Made by a program: the position numbers and the translations under genes. A stretch of 41,151 nucleotides of DNA from NCBI GenBank assembly GCA_009778675.1, contig WRFU01000004.1, forward strand, positions 1-41,151. Reading direction: 5' to 3'. This DNA comes from Candidatus Saccharimonadota bacterium. Its GTDB lineage: Bacteria > Patescibacteriota > Saccharimonadia > Saccharimonadales > Saccharimonadaceae. The notes below the pieces were generated by a model, which saw nothing but the letters and a program-made list of their open reading frames with translations, had not been told where the DNA came from and ran no database searches. Below are positions 2,017-25,988 of this stretch, in pieces (within the stretch, counting starts at the first letter, position 1; the number at the start of each line of letters is the position of its first letter).

Positions 2017-2665
2017 GCGAAATTCCTTGTCTGGTAAGTTCAGACCCGCACGAATGGAGTAATCATGTGAGCACTGTCTCGGCGAAGGCCTCGGTGAAAG
2101 TGCATTGGCGGTAAAGATGCCGTCTATCCATACCAGGACGAGAAGACCCCATGGAGCTTTACTACAGCTTTACATTGATTTGAGTTATATGATGTGTAGC
2201 ATAGGTCGGAGACTTTGAAGCAGATACGCTAGTATTTGTGGAGTCGCAATGTGAAATACGACCCTTTGTGTTATTTAAATCTTACTCTTGCCGTTATCCG
2301 GTAAGAGGACCGTGTATGGTGGGTAGTTTAACTGGGGCGGTTGCCTCCTAAAGAGTAGCGGAGGCGTTCAAAGGTTGGCTAACTTCGGATGGAAATCGAA
2401 GTGGTAGTGTATGCGCAAAAGCCAGCTTGACTGTGAGGACTACAATCCAATCAGAGACGAAAGTCGGAGCAAATGACCCGCTGTAAGTACATTTGTACAA
2501 TTTATGTGGGAAAGACAGCGCACACGGATAAAAGTTACCCTGGGGATAACAGGCTTATAGCGCCCAATAGTTCACATAGACGGCGCTGTTTGGCACCTCG
2601 ATGTCGGCTCATCATATCCTGGAGGGGGAGCACCTTCCAAGGGTCCGGCTGTTCGCCGGTTAAAA

Positions 2666-2707
<42 letters not shown>

Positions 2708-2743
2708 TTATATCCGGTATGGACGTTAGGAAATTTGAGGAGA

Positions 2744-2776
<33 letters not shown>

Positions 2777-3179
2777 AACCGCTGGTGTATCGGTTGTGGC
2801 CACCTGCTGCATTGCCGAGTAGCTATGTTCGGAATGGATAAGCGCTGAAAGCATATTAAGCGCGAAGCCAACTTCAAGATAAGATTTCCCTATGAACTCC
2901 CAGAAAGAATATCTGGTTGATAGGTGCAAGGTAGAAGCGTGGTAACACGTGCAGCTGAAGCATACTAATAGAGTCATTGCCTTTTTATGTCCTTGTCACT
3001 GAGGTTAACTTGTTTAACCGATGGTGATAAGGTAGACTTGATCAGTAATTGGTAATTAAATTGCCAAAGTCAATCTTAAAAATTTATTCGGTGATTGACA
3101 TCGAACTGGGGCTTTTGCGGGTAGTGTGGCTTTCGGGTGACATTACAATCAGTTAAATCTGAGCACGTAAAAGTTCCTG

Positions 3180-3287
3180 TTCGGTGTCCATGGCACTGGG
3201 GAAACACCTGTTCTCATCCCGAACACAGAAGTTAAGCCCAGTAGCGGCGATTATACTGCGTAAGCGGGAAACTAGCACGATGCCGAA
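3180..3287 (+). rRNA. rrf: 5S ribosomal RNA
   Basis: The conserved loop region (CCCGAACACAGAAGTTAAGCCC near 3217-3238) is clear. The terminal helix pairs TTCGGTGTC at 3180-3188 with GATGCCGAA at 3279-3287 through Watson-Crick and G-U pairs. Length is about 108 nt. It follows 23S by about 195 bp, with no tRNA recognised between them, and is followed directly by a terminator. Ends may be off by one or two bases. Confidence 0.92.
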
Positions 3288-3294
3288 TTATGTG

Positions 3295-3320
3295 AAAAAG
3301 GTCCTTTTAGGACCTTTTTT
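3295..3320 (+). terminator. rRNA operon terminator
   Basis: GGTCC at 3300-3304 pairs with GGACC at 3310-3314, extended by an A-run on the 5' side and a T-run on the 3' side. It lies 7 nt after 5S rRNA and ends the rRNA operon. Confidence 0.85.
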
Positions 3321-3394
3321 GCGATTTGGCATAATGTATATGTTCCCTTGTATCCATACGGCACAAAGCCGTAGTACCTTAAGGGGGTAGTGTC

Positions 3395-3772
3395 ATGTCG
3401 TCTACTATGTCTGATGTCCGTAAATTGCTTGAAGCTCCTGCCGCATTATGCCTTATCAATGTAAAGGGTGAAAGTAAGCTAATTGCTTTGAGAACCCATT
3501 GGGGCGAAGAACCAGGCTATGCCAATTTCGTCATTTTTGATGAAAAAGGTAATTCGGTTGATAATCTTCAAGGTGAATCACTCGAGACTAATACAATCCA
3601 GCTGCTTATCAATAGGCTTCAGCCAATGTTGGATGGCAAAGAATTCTCTTGCTCTGTACCCTCTATCACGGATATAGCAGCCAACAAAGCTTTTCAGACA
3701 TTCTTCGAACGGAGGCAAAGCTGGGAAGAAAAAGACGCTTGCTTAAGGCTGTATTACTGGCCTCGGTTTTAA
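3395..3772 (+). CDS. Hypothetical protein, 125 aa
   Basis: I do not recognise this protein. It is 125 aa, has no signal peptide or membrane segment, and reads like a soluble cytoplasmic protein. An ATG at 3395 follows a purine-rich AAGGGGG at 3381-3387. A small hairpin (TACGGC at 3357-3362 with GCCGTA at 3368-3373) lies in the leader just before the ribosome binding site. The C-terminal part is rich in aromatic and charged residues (ends in YYWPRF). It is the first of three small unrecognised genes between the rRNA operon and the HD gene, and it appears to have its own terminator. No function can be assigned. Confidence 0.7.
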   Translation: MSSTMSDVRKLLEAPAALCLINVKGESKLIALRTHWGEEPGYANFVIFDEKGNSVDNLQGESLETNTIQLLINRLQPMLDGKEFSCSVPSITDIAANKAFQTFFERRQSWEEKDACLRLYYWPRF

Positions 3773-3810
3773 AAGATAGGCAAGAGCGCTTAGCATTTAC
3801 AAGGGTACAC

Positions 3811-3845
3811 AAGGGCTGATCGTAATGACCAGCCCCTTTGCTTTT
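3811..3845 (+). terminator. Probable terminator after the 125-aa gene
   Basis: AAGGGCTG at 3811-3818 pairs with CAGCCCCTT at 3830-3838 with one bulged base, followed by TTGCTTTT. It separates the 125-aa gene from the next transcription unit. Confidence 0.6.
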
Positions 3846-3860
3846 GTACGCCCTATTTTG

Positions 3861-3869
3861 TGCTATACT
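3861..3869 (+). promoter_or_regulatory. Extended -10 promoter for the two genes at 3937-4717
   Basis: TGCTATACT is an extended -10 box about 68 bp upstream of the next start codon. A possible TTGTAC at 3844-3849 is too close (14 bp) to be an optimal -35, so the TG extension probably carries recognition. Confidence 0.5.
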
Positions 3870-3936
3870 AACAGCAGATTCTTATTGGGTGGGCTAACGG
3901 ATAGCTCTTTTATTTTTGTGAAAGGAAGTGAGCCAG

Positions 3937-4263
3937 ATGGCGGGTCGCGTGGTTTACGAGGACGATGTACAGGCGATTGTCAAGCAAACTGGCGGGTGTG
4001 TGCTATGTCATCCATACATGGACACCACAGCTGCCATACTACATGTTAAAGGTGAACGGAAGGCCTTTGTGGTAGTTAGTGAAGACGGTACAGAGATATG
4101 GAGTACTAATACTGTCGCCTTTGCGTGCTTGTACTTAAAAAATCACGGCTGGGTAGATGTCTTAATGGGATGGTTTAAAGCCATACATGACGAAACTCCA
4201 CTACGCCAGTATGTGGACAGGTTCTTGGCAAAGAACCCTCAGTATGCTTTTTTGGGCAAATAA
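3937..4263 (+). CDS. Hypothetical protein, 108 aa
   Basis: I do not recognise this protein. The reading frame also has a GTG at 3928, but AAAGGAAG at 3920-3927 sits at the proper distance from the ATG at 3937, so that start is chosen. The product is a soluble protein with a CxxC-like pair near the N-terminus (CVLCHP), a Trp-containing centre and no membrane segment. It is separated by 13 bp from the next gene, whose Shine-Dalgarno begins at its stop codon, so the two are probably co-transcribed. A metal-binding role for the Cys pair is only a guess. Confidence 0.65.
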   Translation: MAGRVVYEDDVQAIVKQTGGCVLCHPYMDTTAAILHVKGERKAFVVVSEDGTEIWSTNTVAFACLYLKNHGWVDVLMGWFKAIHDETPLRQYVDRFLAKNPQYAFLGK

Positions 4264-4276
4264 GGAGGTGATTGTT

Positions 4277-4717
4277 ATGTTGTTTGTAACGGTAGTCTCA
4301 ACATGGAAAGGTCCGATGAAATTTAAGTGTAAGGTGCACCACGCAGAAACTCCAACTGACTTGAAGCTTCCAGATGAGTTTTATACTGAAAATGGTTATC
4401 CAGTCCCAGAGTCAAACTACGAGATGGAAATCTTAGTGATGCCGTCGACAGATGATCCAGAGCTAAAGCCGTGCCTCCATACCCATCTATCTAAGGATGG
4501 CAAAGATTTTGTGTGCTATCCTTCAAAGTTAAACTCTGAAAAAGAGGCGCATCACTTCTTTGAGATTTGGTGTTTAGGCGTAGCGTGCGCCTTAGCTTTT
4601 GGGCTAGAAGGTGATTTAGACCGGCTTAAAAAGAAAGCTGGAAGCCTAGATAAAATCCAAGGGTATGTGAATCAGTGCTATTCGGTTATCATTCAGACTT
4701 CGGAGATAATCGAATAA
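4277..4717 (+). CDS. Hypothetical protein, 146 aa
   Basis: I do not recognise this protein. The start at 4277 is set by a near-perfect Shine-Dalgarno AAGGAGGTGA at 4262-4271; the frame is open further upstream, but that part overlaps the preceding gene. The product is soluble and acidic, with several His and Cys residues (KVHHAE, PCLHTH) and a helix-like C-terminal half. The near-perfect ribosome binding site contrasts with the leaderless genes around it. It forms a two-gene unit with the 108-aa protein. Confidence 0.7.
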   Translation: MLFVTVVSTWKGPMKFKCKVHHAETPTDLKLPDEFYTENGYPVPESNYEMEILVMPSTDDPELKPCLHTHLSKDGKDFVCYPSKLNSEKEAHHFFEIWCLGVACALAFGLEGDLDRLKKKAGSLDKIQGYVNQCYSVIIQTSEIIE

Positions 4718-4728
4718 TAAACCATCTC

Positions 4729-4790
4729 AAGCCGCCAAAGAAAAGTTGCTGATTTTGCATAAATCACGCGCTCAAGTATCGGCGGCTTTT
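4729..4790 (+). terminator. Possible terminator with long loop
   Basis: AAGCCGCC at 4729-4736 is complementary to GGCGGCTT at 4781-4788, which is followed by TTCTTT. The 44-nt loop is long for an intrinsic terminator. It lies between the 146-aa gene and the HD gene promoter. Confidence 0.45.
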
Positions 4791-4795
4791 CTTTG

Positions 4796-4804
4796 TGCTA
4801 TAAT
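4796..4804 (+). promoter_or_regulatory. Extended -10 promoter of the HD-domain gene (leaderless)
   Basis: TGCTATAAT is a consensus extended -10 box. Only 7 bp (4805-4811) separate it from the ATG at 4812, so the transcript should begin at the start codon. No Shine-Dalgarno is present. Confidence 0.7.
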
Positions 4805-4811
4805 TACCCCC

Positions 4812-5363
4812 ATGATACCAACGTTAAAACAAGCGCAAACACTATTAGAAAAATACAACAAGCAGCCGTTTCATCTTAAACATGCTCATACGGTTAGTGG
4901 TGTAATGCGCTATTTTGCCAAAGAATATGATCCTAAAAAGGAAGATTTCTGGGCGGTGGTTGGGCTGTTACACGATATCGATTTTGAACAGTTCCCAGAT
5001 GAGCATTGTGTAAAAGGCGAAGAAATCTTGCGCGAAAACAACATTAGCGAAGATATTATCCACGCCACTATGTCGCACGGTTACGGCTTAACCGGCATTA
5101 AGCACAAACCAGAGCAATTTATGGAAAAAATTCTGTTTGCAACAGATGAATTAACAGGGCTGATCGGTGCTGTAGCCCTAATGCGCCCCAGCAAAAGTGT
5201 ACAAGACCTAGAGCTAAAAAGTGTTAAAAAGAAATTTAAAGATAAAAAGTTTGCCGCTGGTTGTTCGCGTGATGTTATAGAAAAAGGCGCAGATATGCTA
5301 GGTTGGAGTCTGGACGAGCTAATAGAAAAAACTATTCGAGCAATGCGTACAGTGACAGACTGA
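4812..5363 (+). CDS. HD-domain phosphohydrolase
   Basis: The 183-aa protein has the HD-superfamily metal site: an N-terminal His (KHAHT, about residue 23), the HD pair in LLHDID (about residue 57), a downstream His (SHGYG) and a late Asp (ATDELTG). Such proteins are metal-dependent phosphohydrolases acting on nucleotides or related phosphoesters; the substrate here is unknown. The frame is open upstream to 4746, but the extended -10 at 4796-4804 would leave that part untranscribed, so the ATG at 4812 is chosen. It is monocistronic, followed by a hairpin and a strong terminator. Confidence 0.85.
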   Translation: MIPTLKQAQTLLEKYNKQPFHLKHAHTVSGVMRYFAKEYDPKKEDFWAVVGLLHDIDFEQFPDEHCVKGEEILRENNISEDIIHATMSHGYGLTGIKHKPEQFMEKILFATDELTGLIGAVALMRPSKSVQDLELKSVKKKFKDKKFAAGCSRDVIEKGADMLGWSLDELIEKTIRAMRTVTD

Positions 5364-5365
5364 AA

Positions 5366-5395
5366 CAAGCAAAGATCTTGCAAGACCTTTGCTTG
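5366..5395 (+). other. Inverted repeat after the HD gene
   Basis: CAAGCAAAG at 5366-5374 is perfectly complementary to CTTTGCTTG at 5387-5395. There is no T-run, so it may stabilise the mRNA end rather than terminate; the terminator follows 16 bp later. Confidence 0.6.
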
Positions 5396-5410
5396 GAGTG
5401 GTAAGTTAGT

Positions 5411-5440
5411 AAAAAAGAACCCTTGCAGGGGCTCTTTTTA
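5411..5440 (+). terminator. Terminator of the HD gene
   Basis: AAAAAAGAACCC pairs with GGGGCTCTTTTT with a minor mismatch, flanked by A- and T-runs. The ~100 bp after it (5441-5540) hold nothing I can recognise. Confidence 0.8.
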
Positions 5441-5540
5441 AAGCTTAAGCTGTCTCGCATGTAGCTCAATTACCTCTAGTGTATACCACCACGCGCATAA
5501 TGTAAATGCTATTAAATAATAAATAATATGTTAATGTATA

Positions 5541-5569
5541 TTGACAAAACGTAAGCGCTGTGCTACAAT
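5541..5569 (+). promoter_or_regulatory. Consensus sigma70-type promoter for the KGG protein
   Basis: TTGACA at 5541-5546 and TACAAT at 5564-5569 (with TGC before it) are separated by exactly 17 bp. It is one of the strongest promoters in the window. Confidence 0.88.
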
Positions 5570-5615
5570 GCTTGTAAGTGGTGGGAAATAGTAATTAAAG
5601 AAGGGAATTACAGAT

Positions 5616-5813
5616 ATGGCAGGTACTAAAGCTGGCGGTTTAAAAGCTGCTGCTACTAACAAGGCCAAATACGGCACAGCATTTTATGCCAAGATTGGTC
5701 AAAAAGGTGGTCGTTTAGGCCACACTGGTGGTTTTGCTGCTAACCCCGAACTAGCTCGTATAGCTGGTGCAAGGGGTGGTAGAATTTCACGCCGTAGCAA
5801 AAAAGTTGCCTAA
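5616..5813 (+). CDS. KGG-repeat stress protein (YciG-like)
   Basis: The 65-aa basic, glycine-rich protein carries repeated KGG-type motifs (GTKAGG near the start, IGQKGG in the middle, AGARGG near the end), as in the KGG stress-induced family. These small proteins are linked to general stress or stationary phase, but their biochemistry is unresolved. AGAAGGGA lies about 8 nt before the ATG. It is monocistronic, between a consensus promoter and a perfect terminator, so it is probably abundant. Confidence 0.85.
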   Translation: MAGTKAGGLKAAATNKAKYGTAFYAKIGQKGGRLGHTGGFAANPELARIAGARGGRISRRSKKVA

Positions 5814-5828
5814 ATAATAGGTGATCGC

Positions 5829-5860
5829 AGAAATAACCCCTAACTTTAGGGGTTATTTCT
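5829..5860. terminator. Bidirectional terminator
   Basis: A nearly perfect hairpin (AGAAATAACCCCTAA with TTAGGGGTTATTTCT, loop of 2-3 nt) lies between two convergent genes. The A/T-rich arms work on both strands. The stop codon of the minus-strand metallopeptidase lies inside the stem. Confidence 0.88.
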
Positions 5861-6311
5861 TGTCTAAAACTCGTTTTATACGTTTGTGTTTGGCTGGGTT
5901 TACTCGCCAAGTAGCTAGGCAGTTAGGGCATCTGTATCTGTTATTATCAATCTGCCAGCCGGTAGAATCACATTTAGGGCATAAACTGCGGGTATGTAGC
6001 CAATTGCGGTAGGTGTCCATATGGATGCGGACAAAATCTTCATTAAATTTAACCCCATATTTGGGTGCTAGGCGCATTTTGACCCTAGCCCAGGCCTCTG
6101 CCTCAAGCTTAAGTAGCTCAACGTCACTGGCAGCCCTTATATGGCCTAGGGTGGCATGTGCGAGTTCGTGTAGCAGTAGTAAATCTGCCCCAGCCGCTTC
6201 GGGGTTATAACTAACAGTGCGTTCTTTGGGTTGCCACGAAAAATCGTCTGCTTTGGTAAACGTAAACTTTGGGAAATCAGCCATAACGTGCCTTAGTACA
6301 CTGTTAGTCAT
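5853..6311 (-). CDS. ImmA/IrrE-like zinc metallopeptidase with C-terminal zinc ribbon
   Basis: The 152-aa protein contains HELAHATLGH (residues 48-57), an HExxH zinc-protease site, followed by an EAEAW segment (about residues 70-75) that could provide the third ligand. The C-terminus has two Cys pairs (CPKC near 112, CPNC near 128) forming a zinc ribbon. ImmA/IrrE proteins often cleave repressors in stress or mobile-element control; SprT-like proteases are the main alternative and also have zinc ribbons. No paired XRE regulator is adjacent. The start follows an extended -10 box by 6 bp, so the mRNA is probably leaderless. It is convergent with the KGG gene. Confidence 0.8.
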   Translation of the reverse strand: MTNSVLRHVMADFPKFTFTKADDFSWQPKERTVSYNPEAAGADLLLLHELAHATLGHIRAASDVELLKLEAEAWARVKMRLAPKYGVKFNEDFVRIHMDTYRNWLHTRSLCPKCDSTGWQIDNNRYRCPNCLATWRVNPAKHKRIKRVLDKK

Positions 6312-6703: not shown

Positions 6704-6732
6704 TTGCACCAGTAGCCCAGATAAGCTACAAT
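6704..6732 (+). promoter_or_regulatory. Promoter of rpsA-infB
   Basis: TTGCAC at 6704-6709 and TACAAT at 6727-6732 are separated by 17 bp. Transcription would start near 6740, giving a leader of almost 90 nt before rpsA. Confidence 0.75.
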
Positions 6733-6780
6733 AGACTTAATCTGTGTGGGGCGTTTTAACGTACTCATAGAAAATATATT

Positions 6781-6823
6781 AAGGAAGGAGTTTGGGGTTG
6801 CTCTAAAAGACCCCAGAATGTAA
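6781..6823 (+). promoter_or_regulatory. rpsA leader: distant Shine-Dalgarno, hairpin and AUG-UAA
   Basis: AAGGAAGGAG at 6781-6790 is the only strong Shine-Dalgarno but lies 36 nt before the rpsA ATG. Between them TGGGGT at 6793-6798 pairs with ACCCCA at 6810-6815. A minimal ATG-TAA occurs at 6818-6823, three bases before the real start. The hairpin may bring the Shine-Dalgarno near the start or be a target for S1 autoregulation. Confidence 0.5.
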
Positions 6824-6826
6824 CAG

Positions 6827-7897
6827 ATGGCAAAAGCCAATTTAACAATGGATGAATTACTAGCAGGGGCTAGTAGTGAGTCACAACAACTAGTACAGGG
6901 TGAAACCGTAGAGGGTAAAATCTTGTCAGTTAAAAAACATGAAATACTAGTCGATTTAGGGGCTAGGGGTATAGGCCTAGTACCAAGACGTGAGGTCAGT
7001 TTTAGCAAAAGTGTAAACGAGGGCGACGATGTAACTGCCAGCGTAATAGACACCGAAATGGACAACGGCTACGCACTACTGAGCCTACGCAAGGCCGTAA
7101 AAGACCGCGGCTGGGATGAAATTACCGATGCACTAGAAGAAGGCCGTACTATCGAAGTCGTACCATTCGACGCTAACAGAGGTGGGCTATTAGCCGAATA
7201 CGAAGATATTCGGGGCTTTTTGCCAGTTAGCCAACTAAGTGCCGAACACTACCCACGGGTAGGCAGTGCCGACAAAACCGAGATTTTACAGCGGCTAAAC
7301 GTGCTGGTTGGCAAACCAATCCAGGTACGTATACTAGATGCCGATAAAAAGAACAGTAAGCTGATATTTAGCGAAAAAGAAGCCATCCGTGATGGTCTAG
7401 CCCAACGGTTCGAAAAACTAAAGATTGGCGACACTATAGAAGGTGTTGTAACAGGGGTGGTAGATTTTGGCGTGTTTGTGAATGTTGATGGTATCGAAGG
7501 CTTGGTACATATTAGCGAAATTAGCTGGGAACGTGTAAATAACCCTAGTGACTATGTAAAAGTAGGTGACACTATAAAGGCCAAGATCATTGCAATAGAC
7601 AAAGAACGCCTAAGTCTGAGCATGAAACAACTGGTTGAAGATCCATGGTTAAGCGAAATTGAACAATTTAAGGTTGGTGATAAGGTTGAAGGCACGGTAA
7701 CGCGCATTACACCGTTTGGGGCGTTTGTACAGATTAGCCCGGCGGTAGAAGCACTGGTGCATGTTAGTGAACTAGGTGAAGGTGAAGATAACAACCCAGA
7801 AAAGATCTTTACCCTAAACGAACGTAAAGATTTTAAGATTCTAGATATCGATAAAGAAAACCGTAAGATATCACTTGGGTTCTGCAACAAAAAATAA
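6827..7897 (+). CDS. rpsA: 30S ribosomal protein S1, four S1 domains
   Basis: The 356-aa protein is built of four S1 RNA-binding domains at about residues 24-90, 105-185, 195-265 and 282-353. The third has the classical GVVDFGVFVNVDGIEGLVHI-type core, the fourth ITPFGAFVQI. It tethers mRNA to the 30S subunit. E. coli S1 has six domains; four is usual for compact or Gram-positive-like forms. An in-frame TAA at 6821 directly before the start fixes the ATG at 6827 as the earliest possible. It is followed after 30 bp by infB, likely in one transcript. See the leader entry for its odd translation signals. Confidence 0.93.
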   Translation: MAKANLTMDELLAGASSESQQLVQGETVEGKILSVKKHEILVDLGARGIGLVPRREVSFSKSVNEGDDVTASVIDTEMDNGYALLSLRKAVKDRGWDEITDALEEGRTIEVVPFDANRGGLLAEYEDIRGFLPVSQLSAEHYPRVGSADKTEILQRLNVLVGKPIQVRILDADKKNSKLIFSEKEAIRDGLAQRFEKLKIGDTIEGVVTGVVDFGVFVNVDGIEGLVHISEISWERVNNPSDYVKVGDTIKAKIIAIDKERLSLSMKQLVEDPWLSEIEQFKVGDKVEGTVTRITPFGAFVQISPAVEALVHVSELGEGEDNNPEKIFTLNERKDFKILDIDKENRKISLGFCNKK

Positions 7898-7927
7898 CCG
7901 CCAACACGATGGTAGAAAGGAGATATT

Positions 7928-9700
7928 ATGGAACAAGAAAAAGTCATAAGTATCTTTGGGTCTATCACGGTGGACGAATTAGCTACACTACTTGATATAC
8001 CAGTGACTAAACTAATTGGCGAATTGTTTAAAAATGGCGTAGTAGCTACTATTAATCAACGAATTGACTTCGAAACAGCCACGATAATTGTTGAAGAGTT
8101 AGGTTTACCAGTAAAACTAGAAAAAAAAGATGCTGCTAAAGATGTGGTGCACCACAAACATATACCGTCGGCTAACGCTATAACGCGGCCGCCAATTGTG
8201 GCGGTGATGGGGCATGTTGACCACGGCAAAACTACTCTGCTGGACACTTTATTGGACAAAAAAACAGCCCTTAGTGAAGCTGGTGGCATAACGCAGCATA
8301 TTAGCGCTTACCAGGTAAGACATAACGACCGTTTGATTACTTTTTTGGATACCCCTGGGCATGAAGCTTTCGCGGCCATTCGCCAACACGGGGCACAATT
8401 AACAGATATTGTGGTAATAGTTGTAGCTGCCGATGATGGCGTTAAACCACAAACTGTAGAAGCCATAAACTTTGCACGCGACGCTAACGCCAAGATTATC
8501 GTGGCTATCAACAAGATTGATAAAGAAGCGGCTGATGTAAATCGAGTAATGGCGCAACTAGCTACTGATTATGGGTTAAACCCCGAAGAATGGGGTGGTG
8601 ATACTATTATGGTACCAATTAGCGCTAAAGCTAACCAAAATCTAGATAAACTACTAGATATGATTTTGCTAGTAGCGGATATAGAAGAACTAAAGGCCGA
8701 TGTAAAAATTCCGGCCGAAGGTTTAGTGATTGAATCACACCTAGAGACTGGTAAAGGGGCAGTAGCTAATTTGCTGGTAGAGCAGGGTTTGTTAGAGGTA
8801 GGTGACTTTGTGGTAGTTGGTACAGTTTATGGCAAAATCCGTACTTTAGCTGATGATCGTGGTAAACCCATACGTCAAGCTGGTCCATCTGCCCCAGTGG
8901 CAGCGACCGGTTTTAAAGATGTACCACAATTTGGTGATAAGTTTACAGTAGTAAAGAACGAAAAAGTTGCCAAAAAATTAGCCGGTAAAACTGCGGTAGA
9001 CTTAGTAAAAAGTGCGGCCATGACCAATATCACTAGTAGTGATATGTTGCGTATGATTAGCCACAAACACGATATGAAAGATTTTAGAGTGGTAGTAAAA
9101 GCTGATGTTCTAGGTTCGTTGACTTCTGTAATCGACAACTTAAAACTAATTGACACTAAAGATGAAATTAGCGTATCTGTCATTGGCTCGGGGGTAGGTA
9201 ATGTGAACGAAAATGATGTGTATTTAAGTGATGAAGGGACTATTATTTACGGTTTTAACGTTGAAGTTGCGACGACTATTAAGCGACTGGCGGCTCAGCG
9301 TAAAGTGCAAATTAAGATTTTTAAGGTAATTTACGAACTACTAGATGACGCTAAAACCGAAATGTCAAAATTGCTTGACCCAGAAATAATCGAAACAGAG
9401 GTAGGCACGTTAAAAGTTAAAGGGGTGTTTAAAGTTACCAAAGAGTTACTAATCGCCGGTGGTGAAATTACCAAGGGTAAAATCACCGCAAGCTCACTAT
9501 GTCGCGCCGTTCACAACAAAGCAGATTTAGCCAAAGATTTAGAGGTGATCGGGCTACAAAAAGAAAAGCAAGATGTAAAAGAGCTGATAGAAGGTGAAAT
9601 GGGTGGTGTTAGCCTGAAAACTAGCAAAAAAGTACCGCTAGAAATTGACGATCGTTTGGTTTTTTACACCCGCGAAGTTAAACAGCGTAGCCTTCAATAA
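7928..9700 (+). CDS. infB: Translation initiation factor IF-2
   Basis: The 590-aa protein starts with one short IF2_N-type helical domain (residues ~5-58). The GTPase domain has G1 GHVDHGKTT (about residue 95), G3 DTPGHEAF, G4 NKID and G5 SAK, followed by the beta-barrel and C-terminal fMet-tRNA-binding domains. IF-2 places formyl-Met-tRNA on the 30S subunit and promotes subunit joining. E. coli IF-2 is 890 aa; the long N-terminal extension is missing, consistent with a reduced genome. GAAAGGAGA precedes the ATG by about 5 nt. It is probably co-transcribed with rpsA. Confidence 0.97.
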
Positions 9701-16375: not shown

Positions 16376-17146
16376 ATGGCAAAAGTTCATTCTGAAAAGA
16401 AAGAACGCAAAAATCGTAAAATGATTTTTGGGTTCGTTGCACTGTTCGCAGCAATCGCAGTCATAGTTGGCGTTGGTTATGCGTATTTCAGCGATATCTT
16501 GACCGGTACTGGTCAAGCCACAGCTGGTACGTTGGACATCAGCGGTACGCCTAGCATAAAACAAAATGGTACGGCAGTAGCTGGTGGCACAATTTCCAAC
16601 CTAAACCCAGGCGATGTTATCTCTGTTGATACAGGCACAATCACCAATAATGGTAGCAAATCGGCGTGGATACGCAGTGTACTAGAGTTCACTGCACTAA
16701 GTAGCACACCAAATGATGCCAGTGGTGTAGGGGCTAGTACCAAAGTCGGTGATTTGTCGCAATATATCTGGGTTTGCACTGGCGGTGAAAGCCAAACAAC
16801 CCTAATTGCAGCTTCTACAGCTGGTACATTAGGTGCCGGCACGACTGCGAGTTGTACACAAGTTACCAGCGCAGACGTTACCAATTCAACACCATTTGGT
16901 GCAAAAGCAACTTATACAGCACCTGATGATGTAATCAGTGGCTCTGCGGAAGCTGATGGTGCGAGCACAACCTGGACACCAACAGCGCCAGTTGTTATTT
17001 ACTTCGATGCTGCGGCTCCAAATGCCGCGCAAAACGGTAATATGGCGTTCAATATCCTAGTTCAGGCGTTACAGTATAAAAACAACACGACTTCTCCAAC
17101 AGAAGCCCAATGGGATACAGTAACCTCAACATCATTCGCGCTTTAA
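16376..17146 (+). CDS. SipW-type exported protein, TasA/CalY-like
   Basis: The 256-aa protein has a Lys-rich N-terminus, a hydrophobic segment (about 17-35) and AYFSD at residues 36-40, the mark of SipW-dependent signal peptides in TasA/CalY-type matrix and fibre proteins. The mature part is rich in Thr, Ser, Ala and Gly, with a beta-sandwich-like pattern (GTLDISGTPS, NLNPGDVISVDTGTITNNGS). Two Cys could form a disulfide. It probably is a secreted fibre or matrix subunit. A SipW-like peptidase is encoded 0.8 kb downstream. A strong promoter, a good ribosome binding site and a terminator suggest high expression. Confidence 0.8.
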   Translation: MAKVHSEKKERKNRKMIFGFVALFAAIAVIVGVGYAYFSDILTGTGQATAGTLDISGTPSIKQNGTAVAGGTISNLNPGDVISVDTGTITNNGSKSAWIRSVLEFTALSSTPNDASGVGASTKVGDLSQYIWVCTGGESQTTLIAASTAGTLGAGTTASCTQVTSADVTNSTPFGAKATYTAPDDVISGSAEADGASTTWTPTAPVVIYFDAAAPNAAQNGNMAFNILVQALQYKNNTTSPTEAQWDTVTSTSFAL

Positions 17147-17161
17147 TCCTTTGATGGACCT

Positions 17162-17194
17162 AAAAACACTAGTCTTTGCCGCTAGTGTTTTTTC
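17162..17194 (+). terminator. Terminator after the TasA-like gene
   Basis: AAAAACACTAG at 17162-17172 pairs perfectly with CTAGTGTTTTT at 17182-17192, followed by more T. It isolates the TasA-like gene from the genes downstream. Confidence 0.88.
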
Positions 17195-17272
17195 GTGTTA
17201 AAATTAAAATGGTATCTGGGCTAGTTTTAGCTATACTACAGATGCTAAGTAGCTTGATAGTGGATGATGTTT

Positions 17273-17965
17273 ATGAAATTATTTTTTAAAACTAGCCTAG
17301 TCGTCGTTGCGCTGGCAGTCGCAACTGTAATTGGCAGCAAAATGGTCTATGCTGCAGATTACACTATTACGATTAGTGACGATGTTGCCGATGTTAAGAA
17401 TCAAGATATAATTTTCCAGTATTCCAATATCGGGCCAGGGTTTAAGGCTGATGCACTAATCCACATTATTAACCAATCTACCCAACCAGCTATAGTTGAA
17501 CTAGTGGATATAAAACCTGTTGATAGTCCTGTAGCCCCAGTCTCAACCAGAGCCAACAATCTGTTACCATTAGTCAATTTATCGTTACTACGCGATGGAG
17601 TTGTAATCGCGCAAGGTGAAAATGGTGCATATACTAAACTAATTGGTTCTAGGGTATGTATACCTGCGCAACAGAGTGTGGATTTAACAGCGCGTTTTGA
17701 ACTGCCAGCTGGCGTGGGGAATGAAGCACAAAACACATCACTATGGGCACAGTATTATTTTAGCCACAGCACCGGTGATTGCCAGATAGCAGCTCCGCTA
17801 GCTGGGCAAAGCGTGCCCAATGTGCCAAATACTGGCGAAACAATGCTACCGTTTATAGCTTTAGGTGGTGCATCCGCTGTAAGTTTGGTGTCTGTAATAC
17901 TGCTTAGCATGACTTTCCTTTTTCCATTGTTGTTCAAAAGGCGTAAGTCTGATAAAAGGGCATAG
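17273..17965 (+). CDS. Cell-wall protein with VPNTG sorting signal
   Basis: The 230-aa protein has a signal peptide (MKLFFK, hydrophobic core, cleavage near VYA-ADY), a beta-rich extracellular domain with two Cys, and a classical sortase signal near the C-terminus: VPNTGE, a hydrophobic span and the tail KRRKSDKRA. In-frame ATGs also occur at 17264 and 17267; 17273 gives the most typical signal peptide, but no clear Shine-Dalgarno decides. A -10 box TATACT lies at 17232-17237. The gene encoding a SipW-type peptidase fused to a sortase-like domain follows after 18 bp, so this is a natural substrate candidate for the system. Confidence 0.8.
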   Translation: MKLFFKTSLVVVALAVATVIGSKMVYAADYTITISDDVADVKNQDIIFQYSNIGPGFKADALIHIINQSTQPAIVELVDIKPVDSPVAPVSTRANNLLPLVNLSLLRDGVVIAQGENGAYTKLIGSRVCIPAQQSVDLTARFELPAGVGNEAQNTSLWAQYYFSHSTGDCQIAAPLAGQSVPNVPNTGETMLPFIALGGASAVSLVSVILLSMTFLFPLLFKRRKSDKRA

Positions 17966-17983: not shown

Positions 17984-19201
17984 ATGAAGAACCCCACAGA
18001 CCTACCAAAAAAGTCACCCACTGTTGAACCTTTGACTATTAAACAGCCTGGTACTAAAAGTAAAAATCACCGCGCAGTAAAGATTATCGCTAACGTGTTC
18101 TTTGGGCTATGTTTGCTGATTTTAATATTCGCGATAGTGGTTTCATACCAAGCTAAAAAATCTAATAAAGCGGTAGAAATTATGGGGTGGCGACCGTATT
18201 TGATTGCCACCGGGTCTATGGAACCAACTTTTGCCATTAATGGGCTAGTTTTAACACATCAAGATACCTTTTCTAGCGCAAAAATTGGTGATGTAGTCTC
18301 ATTTTCGGCAGCAGGGCTGAATGGTCAAGCAGCATTGCACCGGGTAGTGGCCATCACTTGCACAGATAAAACCGAAACTGCCGATGATTGTTCTACAAAA
18401 GATCGACAACTTTGGGTCAAGGGTGACAACAATCCACACCCCGATGGCGCACCGGTAACGAGCAAAAATTACCTGGGGCGGGCACATTTTAACACCAATA
18501 TGACAGCCTGGTGGATAGGCGAAATACAGCGGCCAAATGGTTGGCTACGGGCGATATTGTTACCGATGATTCTGCTGATCTTGATTTACGTTAGTGCGCG
18601 TTGGTTAATAGCTGCTCCAATTACTTGGCGTGGTAAATTAATAGCCCTAAGTTTGGTGATATTTTTAGTTAGCGCCTCAATCTTGGCTTCTTACACCTTG
18701 TATACGGTCAAACAAATCAAACAAACTAATGCTGATTTGGCTAAAATTTCAACTGAATTTGCTAATTCTGATGCCACAAAAACTTGGAAAGTTATGGGGC
18801 ATCAGGTAATTGGGCGCGTTGAAATCCCGTCATTAAAGTTAGATTATCCAATAGTAGAATATGATGATTCTGCCACCACTTTAAATTTAGCAATTGCCCA
18901 GTTTACCGGTGCGCCGCTTAATTCAACCGGTAATGCTGTATTAATTGGACATCGGGCGTTTGGCGATTCATCACAATTTAATCTATTTTTCGCACATTTA
19001 AGTGCATTAAAGCAACACGATAAAATTTTTGTTACTAATGCTAGCCGAGTGCGTGTACAATATGCAGTACAGAAGTTTGGCGAAGTGTCAACCAATGATG
19101 ATTCTATCTTAAAACAACCTGACAATAAATGCGAAATTACCCTAATCGCGGTCAGTTATACCCTAGGTAATCGCTATATGGTGCAAGCATTAGCAAAATA
19201 G
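17984..19201 (+). CDS. Fusion of SipW-type signal peptidase I and sortase-like domain lacking the catalytic Cys
   Basis: The 405-aa membrane protein has an N-terminal TM segment (about 33-54), then a SipW/ER-type signal peptidase with catalytic Ser78 (GSMEPT), His119 (LHRVV) in place of Lys, and GDNN-D near 148-154. Two more TM segments lie near 188-208 and 216-238. The C-terminal part (265-405) is sortase-like: IPSLKLDYPIVE, IGHR with His323, and Arg397. The TLxTC motif reads TLIAV at 386-390, so Val stands where the nucleophilic Cys should be; the nearest Cys (383) is misplaced. The peptidase half should be active on the AYFSD/AFFSD proteins on either side. The sortase half is probably inactive, a binding module, or non-canonical. 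Confidence 0.85.
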   Translation: MKNPTDLPKKSPTVEPLTIKQPGTKSKNHRAVKIIANVFFGLCLLILIFAIVVSYQAKKSNKAVEIMGWRPYLIATGSMEPTFAINGLVLTHQDTFSSAKIGDVVSFSAAGLNGQAALHRVVAITCTDKTETADDCSTKDRQLWVKGDNNPHPDGAPVTSKNYLGRAHFNTNMTAWWIGEIQRPNGWLRAILLPMILLILIYVSARWLIAAPITWRGKLIALSLVIFLVSASILASYTLYTVKQIKQTNADLAKISTEFANSDATKTWKVMGHQVIGRVEIPSLKLDYPIVEYDDSATTLNLAIAQFTGAPLNSTGNAVLIGHRAFGDSSQFNLFFAHLSALKQHDKIFVTNASRVRVQYAVQKFGEVSTNDDSILKQPDNKCEITLIAVSYTLGNRYMVQALAK

Positions 19202-19287: not shown

Positions 19288-22200
19288 ATGTTTAAAAAAA
19301 TCTTTGCCAAAAAAGGCAAATATAACGTTTTAATGATTATCGGTACGATAGTAATTTTTGCTGGCCTTATTTCGGTCGGTTTTGCGTTTTTTTCAGATAC
19401 GGCGCATCAATCTAACAAAGCCACTAGCGGCTGTTTACAGGTCACACCAACACTTAAAATTGACGGACAAATCGGTGATCGTATTCAATCGCCAGGCTGG
19501 CAAAGTAGCGCAACTTGTGTTCCGGCGCGATATACGCAGGTAGAATATGTGCAATTTAGCGGTAATGATGGCACCGATAATGGTCCATATATCGACACTG
19601 GTATAACCCCGGTCGGTAATATTACAGCGAGCATTGATTTTATGGTTAATAACGCTGATGATTATCAGATACCATTTGGTACTGATGCGCCTGATTTTTA
19701 TTTGGGCGTAGAAGGTGAGAATAATAGTATCTTGTATTTGAACCGGAGTGCAAGCGACCCAATTCATGTTTCAAGTGGCCAACGATACAAGCTTAGTTTT
19801 AACAGCACCGGTGCAGTTTACTTAAATGGTTCGCTTGTAGATAATATGCAGAGCTCAACGCCCATAACTTCAAGCGAGGCATCAATTTTATTAGGAGCTT
19901 TGAATAATGCTGGGACTAATCCGTCTAATTTAATGGCTGGCAAGGTTTACGGGTTTTCGATCAGTAAAGATGGCGTGACTGAACTTAATTACATACCGGT
20001 GTTTGATAACCAAACTGGTGAATATGGTATGTATGATACGGTTAGTGGTCAGTTTGTGGGTAATAGCAGTAGTAGTGGCACTATAACTGGCCCGGCTGTG
20101 TCGTCAACTGATGCCTGCAGTGAACCAACCGGAGGCCTGTATGCCAAGGTCGATTATTTGCAATTTAGTGGCAATATTTTTGATACCAGCGAGACTGGGA
20201 CATATATTGATACTGGTGTAGAGGGGGCAGGTAATCTTGCGGTAAGCCTTGATTATGAGTCTGACGATCAAAGTAACGCTCCGATGGTGTTTGGCGCTAG
20301 CAGTAGTGGATATTTTATGTCTGATATCGAAGGTGCGGCGCGGATCTATTGGATGGGGGATGATTACAACAGCAATGAGCCAGAATGTATTGGGGGTGCG
20401 GATTGTATGACGATGCAAGATGGTGAAAGGCATCAGCTTAGCTTTGATAGCAAGGATGTTTATTGGGATGGTGAGTTAGTTGCTCATTTTACTAATAATA
20501 TAGTGCTCTTGACTAATAACGTTACGATTTACTTAGGTGCGTTAAACAATAGTGGAGGCCCGACTAACATGTTTAAAGGTAAAGTATATTCTTTTAGGGT
20601 AAGTAAAGACGGTGTTGCTAAGCTTAATTACACACCAGTCGTCAATACCGAAACTGGCGAATGTGGTATGTGGGATAGTGTAACTAATCAGTTCTTTGGT
20701 AATGATGGCGATGGCACTATTACCTGCCCGTCACCAGCACCTGATGCGCCGCATTTTGGCTCAACAACTACTGGTGGAGATAATAAAATGCCTTGTAACG
20801 GCCAATATCAAGGTGATGCTGGTGTAGCGGTACAACCCAACACTATCCATAATTTTTCTTATACCCTAACCAACACCGGTACGGTAAATTACCAAAATTA
20901 TACTGGTGATACAATTTCAGCCTGGCTGGATGGTCCATACGTGCCAGTCGATCATCTAACATTCGACGGCAAGGAATATATTGATTCTGGTGTTACCCAA
21001 ACAACCCCTAATCTAGATATCCTAACAAAATACCAATTTACTAATAACCCCGCGCAAAGCTACTCAATGCTATTTGGCGCACGTAACGGTGGCAACGTTA
21101 GCCAGGCTTTGCTGGTGGTTAACAATTATTCCCAAAACATGGCAGTGATGCAGTTTGGTAATTTAAACCCACAGATTGGCACATCGGTAGCTAACCTAAA
21201 CTTAAACACAATGCATTTTGTGACTAACGCCACTAGCGCAACGGCCACGCAGACTAATGTTTCGACTGGTGCTACGCAAACCCGTAATGCTGCACCGACT
21301 ACTGCTAATCTGCCAAATATGCCGATTAGTATATTTATTGGGGCGGACAATCAAGGTAATAACACACCAACGTCTGGTCAGCAATTTGTGGGCGATATGT
21401 ATTCATTCCAAATTAGTTCAAATGGCAAACCGTTGCGCGATATGGTGCCGGTTTACGATTCCCAAAGCGGCCAGTGCGGGCTACTTGATAAAGTTTCAGG
21501 GCAGTTCTTTGGTAACCTTGGTACGGGCACGATAAAGTGTAATTATGGTGCGTCGGCTCAAAGCCCAATGAAGATTTTATTGTACCCAGCTAGCACTAGT
21601 AGTTCGGTGATTAATTCTGATATTGCAGCCATGGACGGCGGTGCAACAACAGCGCCAAACGCTATTGCGACTATCAACGGTTCAACCTGTTCAAGTGTGT
21701 TTATGGGTATCGATGCTGGCATTACACCAGTATGTCAAACAGGTGTGCTACCCAATACGCAGGGGGCGCAAACGAATGTTGGCAGTTCGCAAACTTATAA
21801 TTATAAGTTTGTCGTTTACTTAGCACCAAGTTTTGCAACCAGTGTATTTAGTAATACAAAAGTTTATTTTGGCGTTAGTAGTGCTGCGCAAGGTATTGAG
21901 GCCACTAACTGGAAACAACAGATCCACCCATATATGAATGCTAAAACACCAAAAGGTAACTCACCCATAATTACTATAGCTGGTAATACTCAACCATTTG
22001 TAGGCCAAATTATACCAGATAATGCGACTGTTAACCCGGCAAAGTCCCAGGCAAATTTGACGAATTATTTGCAGGGTCTAGTTAAAGCCACTGATACCGA
22101 AGATGGAGCTTGTAGTTTTACCAGCACTAGTGGTTGTACTATCACTCTGGTGAGTGATGGTGGTTTTGATCCTAATAAAGTCGGCAAATACGAGTTATCA

Positions 22201-23415
22201 TACCAGGCCATCGATCAAGATGGTAATCTGGTCGACACCAATGTCACGGTACGGGTTTGGAACTTTACAAAGATTTCTGGTCGCGATAATACCGCCCTGG
22301 CGCTTGGTAGCAATGGTTCGGTCTGGGCTTGGGGTGCTAACCTGAATGGACAGCTAGGCAACGGCAACACTACTAGCAATTCAACACCAACACAAGTTTC
22401 GGGGCTATCTAATATTGTTGATATTGCCAGCAACGGTGGTATTGGCACTGATGGCGCGTCGTATGCTGTAGCAGCCAACGGTACGGTTTACAGTTGGGGG
22501 GCAGCGACTTACGGACAGCTAGGCAATGGGACTACGAGCGGCAATGTACTTACCCCGACAGCGATTAACATTACTGGGCTGGCCACTGGTGAAAAACCAG
22601 TTGCAGTGGTGGCACAGAATTACAGCGTTGGCATTGTCACAAACCTTGGTAATGTCTGGACTTGGGGCTATAACGTTAACGGTAAATTAGGTGGCGCTGC
22701 AGCGACCAACCAAACTACGCCGATGAAAGTTACACAACTAACTAATATCAAACAGATTGGTCTGGGCTGGTTTAGCGGCATTGCATTGGATAACAACGGC
22801 CAAGCTTGGACTTGGGGCAGCAATGCTAATGGACGACTGGGTATAGGTAACGCTGCCGCAGTAGTGGGTTGTCGCGGTGGTACAGCGTCAGCTTCTGACC
22901 AGTGTATCCCAAATACCTGGAGCAACCAAAGCGGCATTTCATCAGTGGCGGTTGGCTATTGGCCAACTGGTGTGATCAAAAATGATAATTCGCTGTGGGT
23001 CTGGGGCGGCGAAGATTCAGCCGAGCTAGGTAATGGCGGTACGGCAACTGATGGCTCGTTAACACCGGTCAAAATTTTAGACAATGTTCGCCAAGCTGAT
23101 TTCTTCTATGATCAATCAGTGGCCTGTACGCTTGATGGTAAAGTTTACGGTTGGGGTCATGCTTACGAAGCGCCAAGCTTAGGCAATATTGGCTACAATG
23201 TTGATATCGTTTCACCACAATGGATTTCTATCGTGCCAAATTGCCAACAAGTCGTCAATATGTTCCGCGCCGTGCTAGTGTTATCCACAGACGGCACCAC
23301 GGTTTACGGCATGGGGCGCAACACTACTTATGGCGTACTGGGTAATGGCACTTTAGTCAATTCTACAACCACAGCGCCAACCACTTGGGCTTTCAAACCA
23401 GCCGCAGCACTATAA
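19288..23415 (+). CDS. Large surface protein: three LamG-like domains and a seven-repeat RCC1 propeller
   Basis: The 1375-aa protein starts with a basic/hydrophobic export segment and AFFSD at residues 33-37, a SipW-type signal. Three related jelly-roll (LamG/concanavalin-like) domains follow at about 79-268, 285-480 and 550-751, each ending in a similar Q-x-G-E/Q-C/Y-G...FFGN...GTI signature. An Ig-like domain lies at about 891-990. The C-terminal 380 residues hold seven RCC1 repeats (W-x-W-G-x-N-x-x-G-x-L-G type), enough for a complete propeller. There is no sorting signal or C-terminal TM, so it is secreted or held by the N-terminus or by other proteins. The likely role is binding to glycans or proteins on another cell; this is inference. 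Confidence 0.85.
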   Translation: MFKKIFAKKGKYNVLMIIGTIVIFAGLISVGFAFFSDTAHQSNKATSGCLQVTPTLKIDGQIGDRIQSPGWQSSATCVPARYTQVEYVQFSGNDGTDNGPYIDTGITPVGNITASIDFMVNNADDYQIPFGTDAPDFYLGVEGENNSILYLNRSASDPIHVSSGQRYKLSFNSTGAVYLNGSLVDNMQSSTPITSSEASILLGALNNAGTNPSNLMAGKVYGFSISKDGVTELNYIPVFDNQTGEYGMYDTVSGQFVGNSSSSGTITGPAVSSTDACSEPTGGLYAKVDYLQFSGNIFDTSETGTYIDTGVEGAGNLAVSLDYESDDQSNAPMVFGASSSGYFMSDIEGAARIYWMGDDYNSNEPECIGGADCMTMQDGERHQLSFDSKDVYWDGELVAHFTNNIVLLTNNVTIYLGALNNSGGPTNMFKGKVYSFRVSKDGVAKLNYTPVVNTETGECGMWDSVTNQFFGNDGDGTITCPSPAPDAPHFGSTTTGGDNKMPCNGQYQGDAGVAVQPNTIHNFSYTLTNTGTVNYQNYTGDTISAWLDGPYVPVDHLTFDGKEYIDSGVTQTTPNLDILTKYQFTNNPAQSYSMLFGARNGGNVSQALLVVNNYSQNMAVMQFGNLNPQIGTSVANLNLNTMHFVTNATSATATQTNVSTGATQTRNAAPTTANLPNMPISIFIGADNQGNNTPTSGQQFVGDMYSFQISSNGKPLRDMVPVYDSQSGQCGLLDKVSGQFFGNLGTGTIKCNYGASAQSPMKILLYPASTSSSVINSDIAAMDGGATTAPNAIATINGSTCSSVFMGIDAGITPVCQTGVLPNTQGAQTNVGSSQTYNYKFVVYLAPSFATSVFSNTKVYFGVSSAAQGIEATNWKQQIHPYMNAKTPKGNSPIITIAGNTQPFVGQIIPDNATVNPAKSQANLTNYLQGLVKATDTEDGACSFTSTSGCTITLVSDGGFDPNKVGKYELSYQAIDQDGNLVDTNVTVRVWNFTKISGRDNTALALGSNGSVWAWGANLNGQLGNGNTTSNSTPTQVSGLSNIVDIASNGGIGTDGASYAVAANGTVYSWGAATYGQLGNGTTSGNVLTPTAINITGLATGEKPVAVVAQNYSVGIVTNLGNVWTWGYNVNGKLGGAAATNQTTPMKVTQLTNIKQIGLGWFSGIALDNNGQAWTWGSNANGRLGIGNAAAVVGCRGGTASASDQCIPNTWSNQSGISSVAVGYWPTGVIKNDNSLWVWGGEDSAELGNGGTATDGSLTPVKILDNVRQADFFYDQSVACTLDGKVYGWGHAYEAPSLGNIGYNVDIVSPQWISIVPNCQQVVNMFRAVLVLSTDGTTVYGMGRNTTYGVLGNGTLVNSTTTAPTTWAFKPAAAL

Positions 23416-25415: not shown

Positions 25416-25988
25416 ATGAAAAATAAAATTCAGAAATTAATTATGCAGCAACGTGATTTTTTTATCATTGGCGTTGCATTGATGTTAATGTTGGCCATTG
25501 GTAGCGGGGTGGCTTATTTTAGTGGCCAATATAGCCAGCTAGGCCAAGTGCAAACTTCTGTGTTGCCAGTTACACAATACGTAAATTGCTTTATTGATTG
25601 GTCAAAAGCCTACGGCAACAATCCGAGTAATATCAATCCAGACCTTAGGGCAGCATTATGCCGGTTAGGCCAACAAACTGGCACGCAGATAATACCAAAC
25701 GCTGGGTATCGTACCGCTGCAGAACAACAGGCTTTGGGTGATGAATTAATAGCAGCAAACCCGGGTTATTATCGCAATAGTGATGGTACGGTGCGCAACG
25801 CGCAAGGCCAACTAGTCGCCGAAACACCCCAAAATTCGTGGCACGTGACTGGTAATGCCGTCGATATTAATCGCAATGGTGTAGCTGGCGAATTTTATAC
25901 AGAAGAAGAACTAGAACGGGCTGGTCTAACTGGCAGTGGCTTTGAAACAAAAGTCCGTAACGAACCATGGCACGTAGTGCTAAAATAA
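25416..25988 (+). CDS. M15 family D-Ala-D-Ala carboxypeptidase (VanY-like)
   Basis: The 190-aa protein has an N-terminal TM anchor (about 13-36) and an extracytoplasmic M15 zinc peptidase domain. Zinc-site motifs are S-W-H-V-T-G-N-A-V-D (SxHxxGxAxD) and EPWHV at the C-terminus, with GYRT-EQ upstream. It would trim the terminal D-Ala of peptidoglycan stem peptides, at its own or possibly a host cell wall; the target is inference. It lies 13 bp after map and probably belongs to the same transcript. No Shine-Dalgarno is evident. Confidence 0.88.
   Translation: MKNKIQKLIMQQRDFFIIGVALMLMLAIGSGVAYFSGQYSQLGQVQTSVLPVTQYVNCFIDWSKAYGNNPSNINPDLRAALCRLGQQTGTQIIPNAGYRTAAEQQALGDELIAANPGYYRNSDGTVRNAQGQLVAETPQNSWHVTGNAVDINRNGVAGEFYTEEELERAGLTGSGFETKVRNEPWHVVLK

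What the first reader, a model, noticed from the sequence alone, without database searches (positions are those of the whole stretch)
17984..19201. SipW-type signal peptidase fused to a sortase domain that has lost its catalytic cysteine
Seen: peptidase residues Ser78, His119 and Asp in GDNN-D are intact; the sortase half keeps His323 and Arg397, but TLxTC reads TLIAV, with Val390 at the Cys position. Signal peptidase and sortase act one after the other on exported wall proteins, so the fusion makes biological sense. A dead sortase could hold sorting signals for another enzyme or act as a chaperone or assembly factor.
Basis: partly seen in the sequence, partly recalled or inferred. Interest (0 to 1): 0.72.

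Follow-up and report, generated by a model that had tools for sequence, protein, structure and literature searches.

The report
Signal peptidase fused to decayed sortase
A tiny, probably symbiotic bacterium carries one membrane protein that joins an intact signal-peptide cutter to a surface-anchoring enzyme whose catalytic residue is gone; in its relatives the cutter half is kept intact while the anchoring half has lost catalytic residues more than once.

Summary
ORF 17984-19201 (+) joins a SipW/Sec11-type signal peptidase (Ser78, His119 intact) through two membrane helices to a sortase domain with His323 and Arg397 but Val390 where sortases have Cys. Sequencing error is very unlikely. Eight distinct fusions were found: peptidase residues intact in 8 of 8; sortase Cys missing in 3 of 8 (Val, Gly, Ala), His in 2 of 8, so 4 of 8 degraded, by at least two, probably three, separate events. 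All 26 stand-alone sortases examined in the same genomes keep Cys. Conserved setting: a camelysin/TasA-like protein, a membrane protein with predicted TasA-like fold and C-terminal sorting signal, then the fusion. Best reading: a one-protein processing station for a TasA-type surface system, whose sortase half once anchored the TasA-fold base. In the window's lineage that step is lost and was probably passed to one of three Cys-bearing sortases, since other proteins of this genome carry the same xPNTG signal. One relative fuses the base into the same chain. Whether the dead domain still binds substrate or merely decays is open.

The parts
16376..17146 (+). Camelysin/TasA-like secreted protein with a SipW-type signal segment; predicted substrate of the peptidase half
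   Evidence: Peptidase_M73 camelysin 31.2 bits, cut-off 22.5; TasA and SipW-cognate models hit below cut-off; aligned copies beside the fusion in 8 of 8, 34-65% identical to the window (the L026 copy is cut at its start by the fetched end, the L053 copy has no Pfam hit at 0.001)
17165..17193 (+). Hairpin with T-run after the camelysin gene, candidate terminator
   Evidence: seen by eye (8-bp stem, 9-base loop); not listed, whose loop limit is 8
17264..17965 (+). Membrane protein with predicted TasA-like fold and C-terminal sorting signal (the 'base')
   Evidence: AlphaFold2 model pLDDT 72.5; two best solved matches are TasA, Z 9.5 and 9.2, Foldseek E 2.6e-5; aligned copies in 8 of 8
17822..17839 (+). 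VPNTGE sorting motif of the base, followed by a hydrophobic helix and basic tail
17984..19201 (+). Signal peptidase-sortase fusion, 405 aa, three predicted membrane helices (34-52, 191-209, 219-237)
18173..18529 (+). SipW/Sec11-type peptidase domain, residues 64-182; Ser78, His119, Asp148, Asp154 intact
   Evidence: TIGR02228 over cut-off; Sec11 chains hit by the fusion profile; residues the same in 8 of 8
18791..19198 (+). Sortase domain, residues 270-405, lacking the catalytic Cys
   Evidence: VIA-align Z 16.7 to 6ixz, 16.4 to 7s56; best profile hit 4d70, 5.6e-21
19151..19153 (+). Codon GTC, Val390, at the catalytic Cys position
18950..18952 (+). His323 codon, catalytic His kept
19172..19174 (+). 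Arg397 codon, catalytic Arg kept
19288..23415 (+). RCC1 beta-propeller surface protein whose N-terminus resembles SipW substrates (by eye); may belong to the system
   Evidence: WD40_RLD 1.9e-60; RCC1 proteins also beside the L051 and L053 fusions

Best explanation
The protein is a two-headed membrane enzyme of a TasA-type filament or surface system. Both heads probably face outward (inferred from three membrane helices). The peptidase head removes the signal segment of the camelysin/TasA-like subunit and perhaps of other SipW-type neighbours. The sortase head originally cut the xPxTG signal of the neighbouring TasA-fold base to anchor it, and with it the filament, to the cell wall. In the window's lineage the catalytic Cys is lost, so the sortase head cannot form the acyl-enzyme intermediate. 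The base keeps an xPNTG signal like that of other proteins of this genome, so it is most likely anchored in trans by one of three Cys-bearing sortases. The dead domain survives as a membrane-held remnant that may or may not still bind base or filament subunits. Shown: anatomy, residue losses, gene neighbourhood, motifs; predicted: folds. Inferred: substrate pairing, topology, trans anchoring, residual binding.
For: Eight fusions with the same three-gene set. Peptidase residues intact 8 of 8, sortase Cys 5 of 8, His 6 of 8. In the same eight genomes 26 of 26 examined stand-alone sortases keep Cys and 25 of 25 with that region covered keep His; Fisher p 0.009 for Cys (rows are related, so indicative only). 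L051 holds base, peptidase and sortase in one 651-aa frame, Cys kept. Base model: TasA is the best solved match. The base signal is xPxTGE in 4 of 4 fusions with intact sortase but altered at the aligned site in 3 of 4 degraded ones (LPPSGE, LPPTAE, LPPTKE). L052 and L055 carry an extra xPNTG just upstream, like 3 other sorting-signal proteins in each of their genomes (of 16 and 12 pattern matches). Own genome: 7 of 19 pattern matches are C-terminal xPNTG, hydrophobic stretch and basic tail, base included.
Against: No biochemistry. The motif-state association is 3 of 4 against 0 of 4, p 0.14, the window itself keeps an intact VPNTGE, and which motif is the homologous one in L052 and L055 rests on the alignment. 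The L051 genome showed no xPNTG sorting signal (0 of 11 pattern matches), so the genome-wide motif is not common to all. In C. perfringens a sortase gene beside sipW-bsaA is dispensable for BsaA polymers (PMC7395162, passages), and B. cereus TasA/CalY filaments form without sortase (PMC13082335, passages), so a sortase step is not obligatory for this kind of filament. Peptidase action on the neighbours is inferred from family and adjacency. The fusion model is middling (pLDDT 66.9), the TasA match of the base only modestly above unrelated folds (9.5 against 8.2). Only eight fusions were available.
Confidence: 0.55

Rival explanations
1. Pseudosortase adaptor (a reading of the dead domain inside the main model, so the odds are not exclusive of it): the domain is kept for binding. 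It holds the base's sorting signal or a filament subunit next to the peptidase and hands it to a stand-alone sortase, much as the dead signal peptidase SipA is proposed to serve pilus assembly in Streptococcus.
For: 23 of 136 sortase-domain positions are invariant in all eight, degraded ones included, against 16 of 119 in the peptidase domain. Window against L051/L052/L053 is still 44-46% identical in the sortase domain. His and Arg kept in the window. SipA precedent (PMC4049620, abstract and passages).
Against: Sortase-to-peptidase branch ratio is 1.34-3.77 in degraded lineages against 0.79-1.56 in intact ones, one-sided p 0.057; the base signal is altered in three degraded lineages.
Confidence: 0.27
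2. Plain decay (the other reading of the dead domain): after the sortase step became dispensable or was taken over in trans, the domain drifts and stays only as the C-terminal tail of a needed peptidase.
For: Losses at different residues, somewhat faster sortase branches, altered partner signals.
Against: The frame is open and the domain full length in 8 of 8, and the fold is predicted to persist in the window.
Confidence: 0.28
3. Sequencing or assembly error in the window's genome.
For: Five of eight fusions have Cys here.
Against: Two-base codon change plus a changed neighbour residue, open frame, and Gly and Ala at the same place in two independent assemblies.
Confidence: 0.02
4. The domain works with another nucleophile.
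For: His and Arg kept.
Against: Val, Gly and Ala cannot act as nucleophiles; Cys383 lies before the strand that ends at 390 and is not conserved.
Confidence: 0.02

Closest known systems
Bacillus tapA-sipW-tasA and sipW-tasA/calY matrix loci
   Same: SipW-type peptidase next to TasA/camelysin proteins; subunits processed by SipW (PMC13082335, passages)
   Different: SipW not fused to a sortase (recalled); here the accessory TasA-fold protein carries a membrane helix and sorting signal
Clostridium perfringens srtB beside sipW-bsaABCRSD
   Same: Sortase gene, sipW and TasA-like matrix protein side by side; sortase dispensable for the polymer (PMC7395162, abstract and passages)
   Different: Separate genes, no fusion
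Streptococcus pyogenes SipA in pilus islands
   Same: A signal-peptidase/sortase partnership in which one partner is catalytically dead (PMC4049620, abstract and passages)
   Different: There the peptidase is dead and the sortase active; here the reverse, in one chain
Class D and class C sortases (4d70, 2kw8, 6ixz)
   Same: Fold and TLxTC strand region; closest by profile and by structure
   Different: Cys replaced; fused to a peptidase; far below every NCBIfam class cut-off that was hit

Membership tests
Sortase (PF04203; TIGR01076) | Scores over the curated cut-offs and sortase fold | tested here: met
   58 against 26.6 bits; 41.4 against 39.35; Z up to 16.7
Catalytically competent sortase | Catalytic Cys at the end of TLxTC | tested here: not met
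   Val390, codon GTC
Catalytically competent sortase | Catalytic His and Arg | tested here: met
   His323, Arg397
Named sortase class (NCBIfam B, C, D, E, F, GN) | Score over the class cut-off | tested here: not met
   C 46 against 160; D 30.5 against 165; SrtD 37.9 against 140; GN 26.6 against 158.25; E 26.3 against 160; F 20.7 against 166; B 11.3 against 153.75; class A gave no row
Signal peptidase I, TIGR02228 (SipW/archaeal/Sec11 type) | Score over cut-off and Ser-His pair | tested here: met
   62.5 against 51.85; Ser78, His119 the same in 8 of 8
Bacillus SipW equivalog (NF046067) | Score over cut-off | tested here: not met
   48.7 against 190
TasA-type matrix system | SipW-type peptidase and camelysin/TasA-family protein encoded side by side | tested here: met
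   Peptidase_M73 over cut-off in the window; aligned copies in 8 of 8 loci; TasA equivalog NF046066 itself not met, 23.3 against 450
TasA-type matrix system | Filaments formed by the subunit | not testable with these tools
   needs imaging or purified protein
SipA-like assembly factor | Dead domain required for surface assembly | not testable with these tools
   needs gene removal

The most novel reading that the evidence does not exclude
A pseudosortase built into a signal peptidase: a dead sortase domain retained as a membrane-held docking module that receives a TasA-fold base as its signal segment is cut and passes it to stand-alone sortases. When the fused enzyme dies, the base's sorting signal is re-addressed from the fused to the trans enzymes.
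Probability: 0.25. Interest if true: 0.75.

Novelty: new variant of a known kind. Interest (0 to 1): 0.6.

Why it matters
Phrase searches of the held open-access papers found no description of a signal peptidase-sortase fusion or of a naturally Cys-less sortase (no paper; one, unrelated by its passages: eight listings on Saccharibacteria and sortase, not opened). The search terms were narrow and other literature was not searched. The set gives a natural series from intact to dead sortase in one architecture with its likely substrate encoded next door, so 'what does a pseudosortase do' and 'are TasA-type filaments ever wall-anchored by sortase' become directly testable. It also bears on how ultra-small bacteria build their surface; a divergent copy of the gene set sits in an actinobacterial genome bin, and Actinobacteria are the usual hosts of Saccharibacteria (host fact recalled).

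Tried and rejected
Sequencing error: rejected. Cys383 as replacement: judged very unlikely. Viral contigs: 29 pattern matches, none a relative. Camelysin and base profiles against solved sequences gave no convincing hit; only the fold comparison linked the base to TasA. Spread of full fusions: 6 of 394 genomes sampled from the family (E up to 1e-15; the other 35 matching genomes match the peptidase part only); 1 of 294 from the order and 1 of 379 from the phylum, each time the window's own (E up to 1e-30; samples overlap); 1 of 297 for relatives of the L053 genome, being that genome itself (E up to 1e-20); the genus sample held the own genome alone; 8 of 100 matched, 4 full length with the window, 4 peptidase only and dropped. 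Duplicates of one genome under two handles (L011/L052, L012/L055, L013/L059, L025/L054) were counted once. The stop that one search reports inside the L025 match lies at the border with the base gene upstream; the fusion frame itself is open. One sortase match under the Pfam cut-off in G584 was not examined. Arg was left out of the stand-alone comparison because four actinobacterial sortases lack it at the aligned place.

Full report
What is there. ORF 17984-19201 (+) gives 405 aa. Residues 64-182 are a signal peptidase of the SipW/archaeal/Sec11 type (TIGR02228 62.5 bits, cut-off 51.85; Ser78, His119). Residues 270-405 are a sortase domain (PF04203, 1e-15). Three hydrophobic helices (34-52, 191-209, 219-237) would place both domains on one side of the membrane; three such helices occur in 8 of 8 fusions, with a fourth after the sortase in L053. 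An AlphaFold2 model (pLDDT 66.9) aligns in its sortase half with solved sortases at Z up to 16.7 (6ixz; 7s56 at 16.4, tied). The profile of the fusions hits 4d70, a C. perfringens sortase D, best (5.6e-21). The general sortase model TIGR01076 is reached, no NCBIfam class cut-off is.

The Cys is really gone. TLIAV stands where solved relatives have TLITC. The codon is GTC, two changes from TGC, and residue 389 differs too. The only Cys in the half, Cys383, comes just before predicted strand 384-390 and is Lys or Arg in the other seven.

Relatives. Distinct full-length fusions: window, L051 (Th196P3bin94), L052 (UBA949), L053 (Lab288P1bin78), L054 (Roe453_bin68), L055 (Cf509_bin11), L059 (Pc512_bin123) and L026 (genome G135). 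UBA949 is titled Candidatus Saccharibacteria, so the window is very probably a Saccharibacterium, although other records of the set bear the titles 'Nomurabacteria' or 'Microgenomates'. Sample codes: Th196 is Termes hospes and Lab288 Labiotermes labralis (PMC7024585, passages); other bins of samples Pc512 and Roe453 are from Prorhinotermes canalifrons and Roisinitermes ebogoensis (PMC11707648, passages). So four of eight can be assigned to termite guts by sample code; Cf509 as another termite is recalled; the habitat of the window, UBA949 and G135 is unknown to me.

Catalytic residues at the His/Cys/Arg places: window H-V-R; L051 H-C-R; L052 R-G-R; L053 H-A-G; L054 H-C-R; L055 N-C-R; L059 H-C-R; L026 H-C-R. 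The peptidase Ser78, His119, Lys146-Gly-Asp148 and Asp154 are the same in 8 of 8. On the tree (one strongly supported branch splits window/L051/L052/L053 from the other four; other bootstrap values 76-94; L053 is a long branch) the Cys state needs two changes: two losses, or one loss and a regain in L051, which I think less likely. The L055 His loss lies in the other half of the tree, so the domain lost catalytic residues at least twice and probably three times. Control: PF04203 searches of the eight genomes gave 35 matches (4, 31): 8 fusions, 26 stand-alone examined, 1 below cut-off not examined. Of the 26, 26 have Cys, and 25 of 25 with the region covered have His (read by eye). Fisher p is 0.009 for Cys and 0.0015 for Cys or His, with the caution that the sequences are related.

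Setting. In 8 of 8 loci the order is camelysin/TasA-like protein, base protein, fusion. The L026 camelysin is cut at its start by the fetched end, and the L053 copy has no Pfam hit at 0.001 and is assigned by alignment (43%). The base has an ectodomain of about 150 residues, an xPxTG-like motif, a membrane helix in 8 of 8 and an N-terminal hydrophobic segment over my threshold in 7 of 8, not in L054. Its model (pLDDT 72.5) has TasA as best match in both comparisons (Z 9.5 and 9.2, next 8.2; Foldseek E 2.6e-5). The margin over unrelated beta-sandwiches is modest, so the TasA-like fold is likely rather than proven. In L051 base, peptidase and sortase form one 651-aa frame. An RCC1 beta-propeller protein lies beside the window, L051 and L053 fusions; L052 has a protein with a similar N-terminal part, cut by the fetched end, in which Pfam found nothing. 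The other four loci were not scanned for RCC1.

Signals. Base motif at the aligned site: LPPTGE L051, VPNTGE L054, LPNTGE L059, LPKTGE L026 (sortase intact); VPNTGE window, LPPSGE L052, LPPTAE L053, LPPTKE L055 (sortase degraded). So 3 of 4 degraded and 0 of 4 intact have an altered motif (two-sided p 0.14). L052 and L055 have an extra TPNTGA or PPNTGG upstream. Proteins with C-terminal PNTG and a hydrophobic stretch, judged by eye and besides the base: 6 in the window's genome (of 19 pattern matches), 3 in UBA949 (of 16) and 3 in Cf509 (of 12), 2 clear ones in Pc512 (of 16) and none in Th196 (of 11). One of the three in UBA949 (L205) has hardly any basic tail. This fits re-addressing of the base from the fused sortase to trans sortases, but the numbers are small and other motif types were not searched.

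Rates. On the fixed topology the sortase/peptidase end-branch ratio is 1.65 window, 1.34 L052, 1.77 L053, 3.77 L055, against 0.79 L051, 0.95 L054, 1.40 L059, 1.56 L026 (one-sided p 0.057). The domain tends to evolve faster where it is degraded, yet keeps an open frame and full length.

Mechanism. Known for the kind: SipW cleaves TasA-type subunits, which polymerise without sortase (PMC13082335 and PMC7395162, passages). My reading adds a base subunit anchored by sortase, with both processing steps in one protein. In the window the anchoring head is dead and anchoring, if it still occurs, must be in trans. Whether the dead head still binds is undecided between an adaptor (compare SipA, PMC4049620, abstract and passages) and decay; the odds given for these two are readings inside the main model and do not add to it.

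Lateral transfer. L053 lies in a bin titled Streptosporangiales; GC is 0.68-0.77 in 1-kb steps along the whole fetched stretch, and 1 of 297 related genomes searched has the fusion, its own. The set has probably moved between Saccharibacteria and this actinobacterium or a shared source; direction was not tested, and a binning error is not fully excluded, though the high GC speaks against a stray Saccharibacterial contig.

Noticed in passing
L213, L215, L217, L225, L229, L234, L235, L236 (genome G586); L175 (own genome C8); L196 (G585): Frames ending in [AV]PNTG plus two or three residues (often RR or RG) and a stop, without the usual hydrophobic tail in that frame: nine such ends among 16 pattern matches in Pc512, one each in the window's genome and Cf509. 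A tail-less sorting signal or another C-terminal tag?
   Followed up: partly
L053: A divergent copy (fusion 39% identical) of the camelysin-base-fusion-RCC1 set in a Streptosporangiales bin from a termite gut, with Cys to Ala and Arg to Gly in the sortase half and an extra C-terminal membrane helix.
   Followed up: partly
L051:5137-7089: Base protein, signal peptidase and sortase in one 651-aa reading frame, catalytic residues intact.
   Followed up: yes
L007 (own genome C18) 1726-5869 (-) and 6728-8005 (+): A second SipW-type peptidase (389 aa) with several short exported-looking proteins, next to a stand-alone sortase with Cys.
   Followed up: no
window 19288-23415: 1375-aa RCC1 beta-propeller surface protein with repeated 'YIDTG' blocks in its N-terminal half and a SipW-type N-terminus (by eye).
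   Followed up: no
window 25416-25988: VanY-type D-Ala-D-Ala carboxypeptidase (26.4 bits, cut-off 25) a few genes downstream.
   Followed up: no
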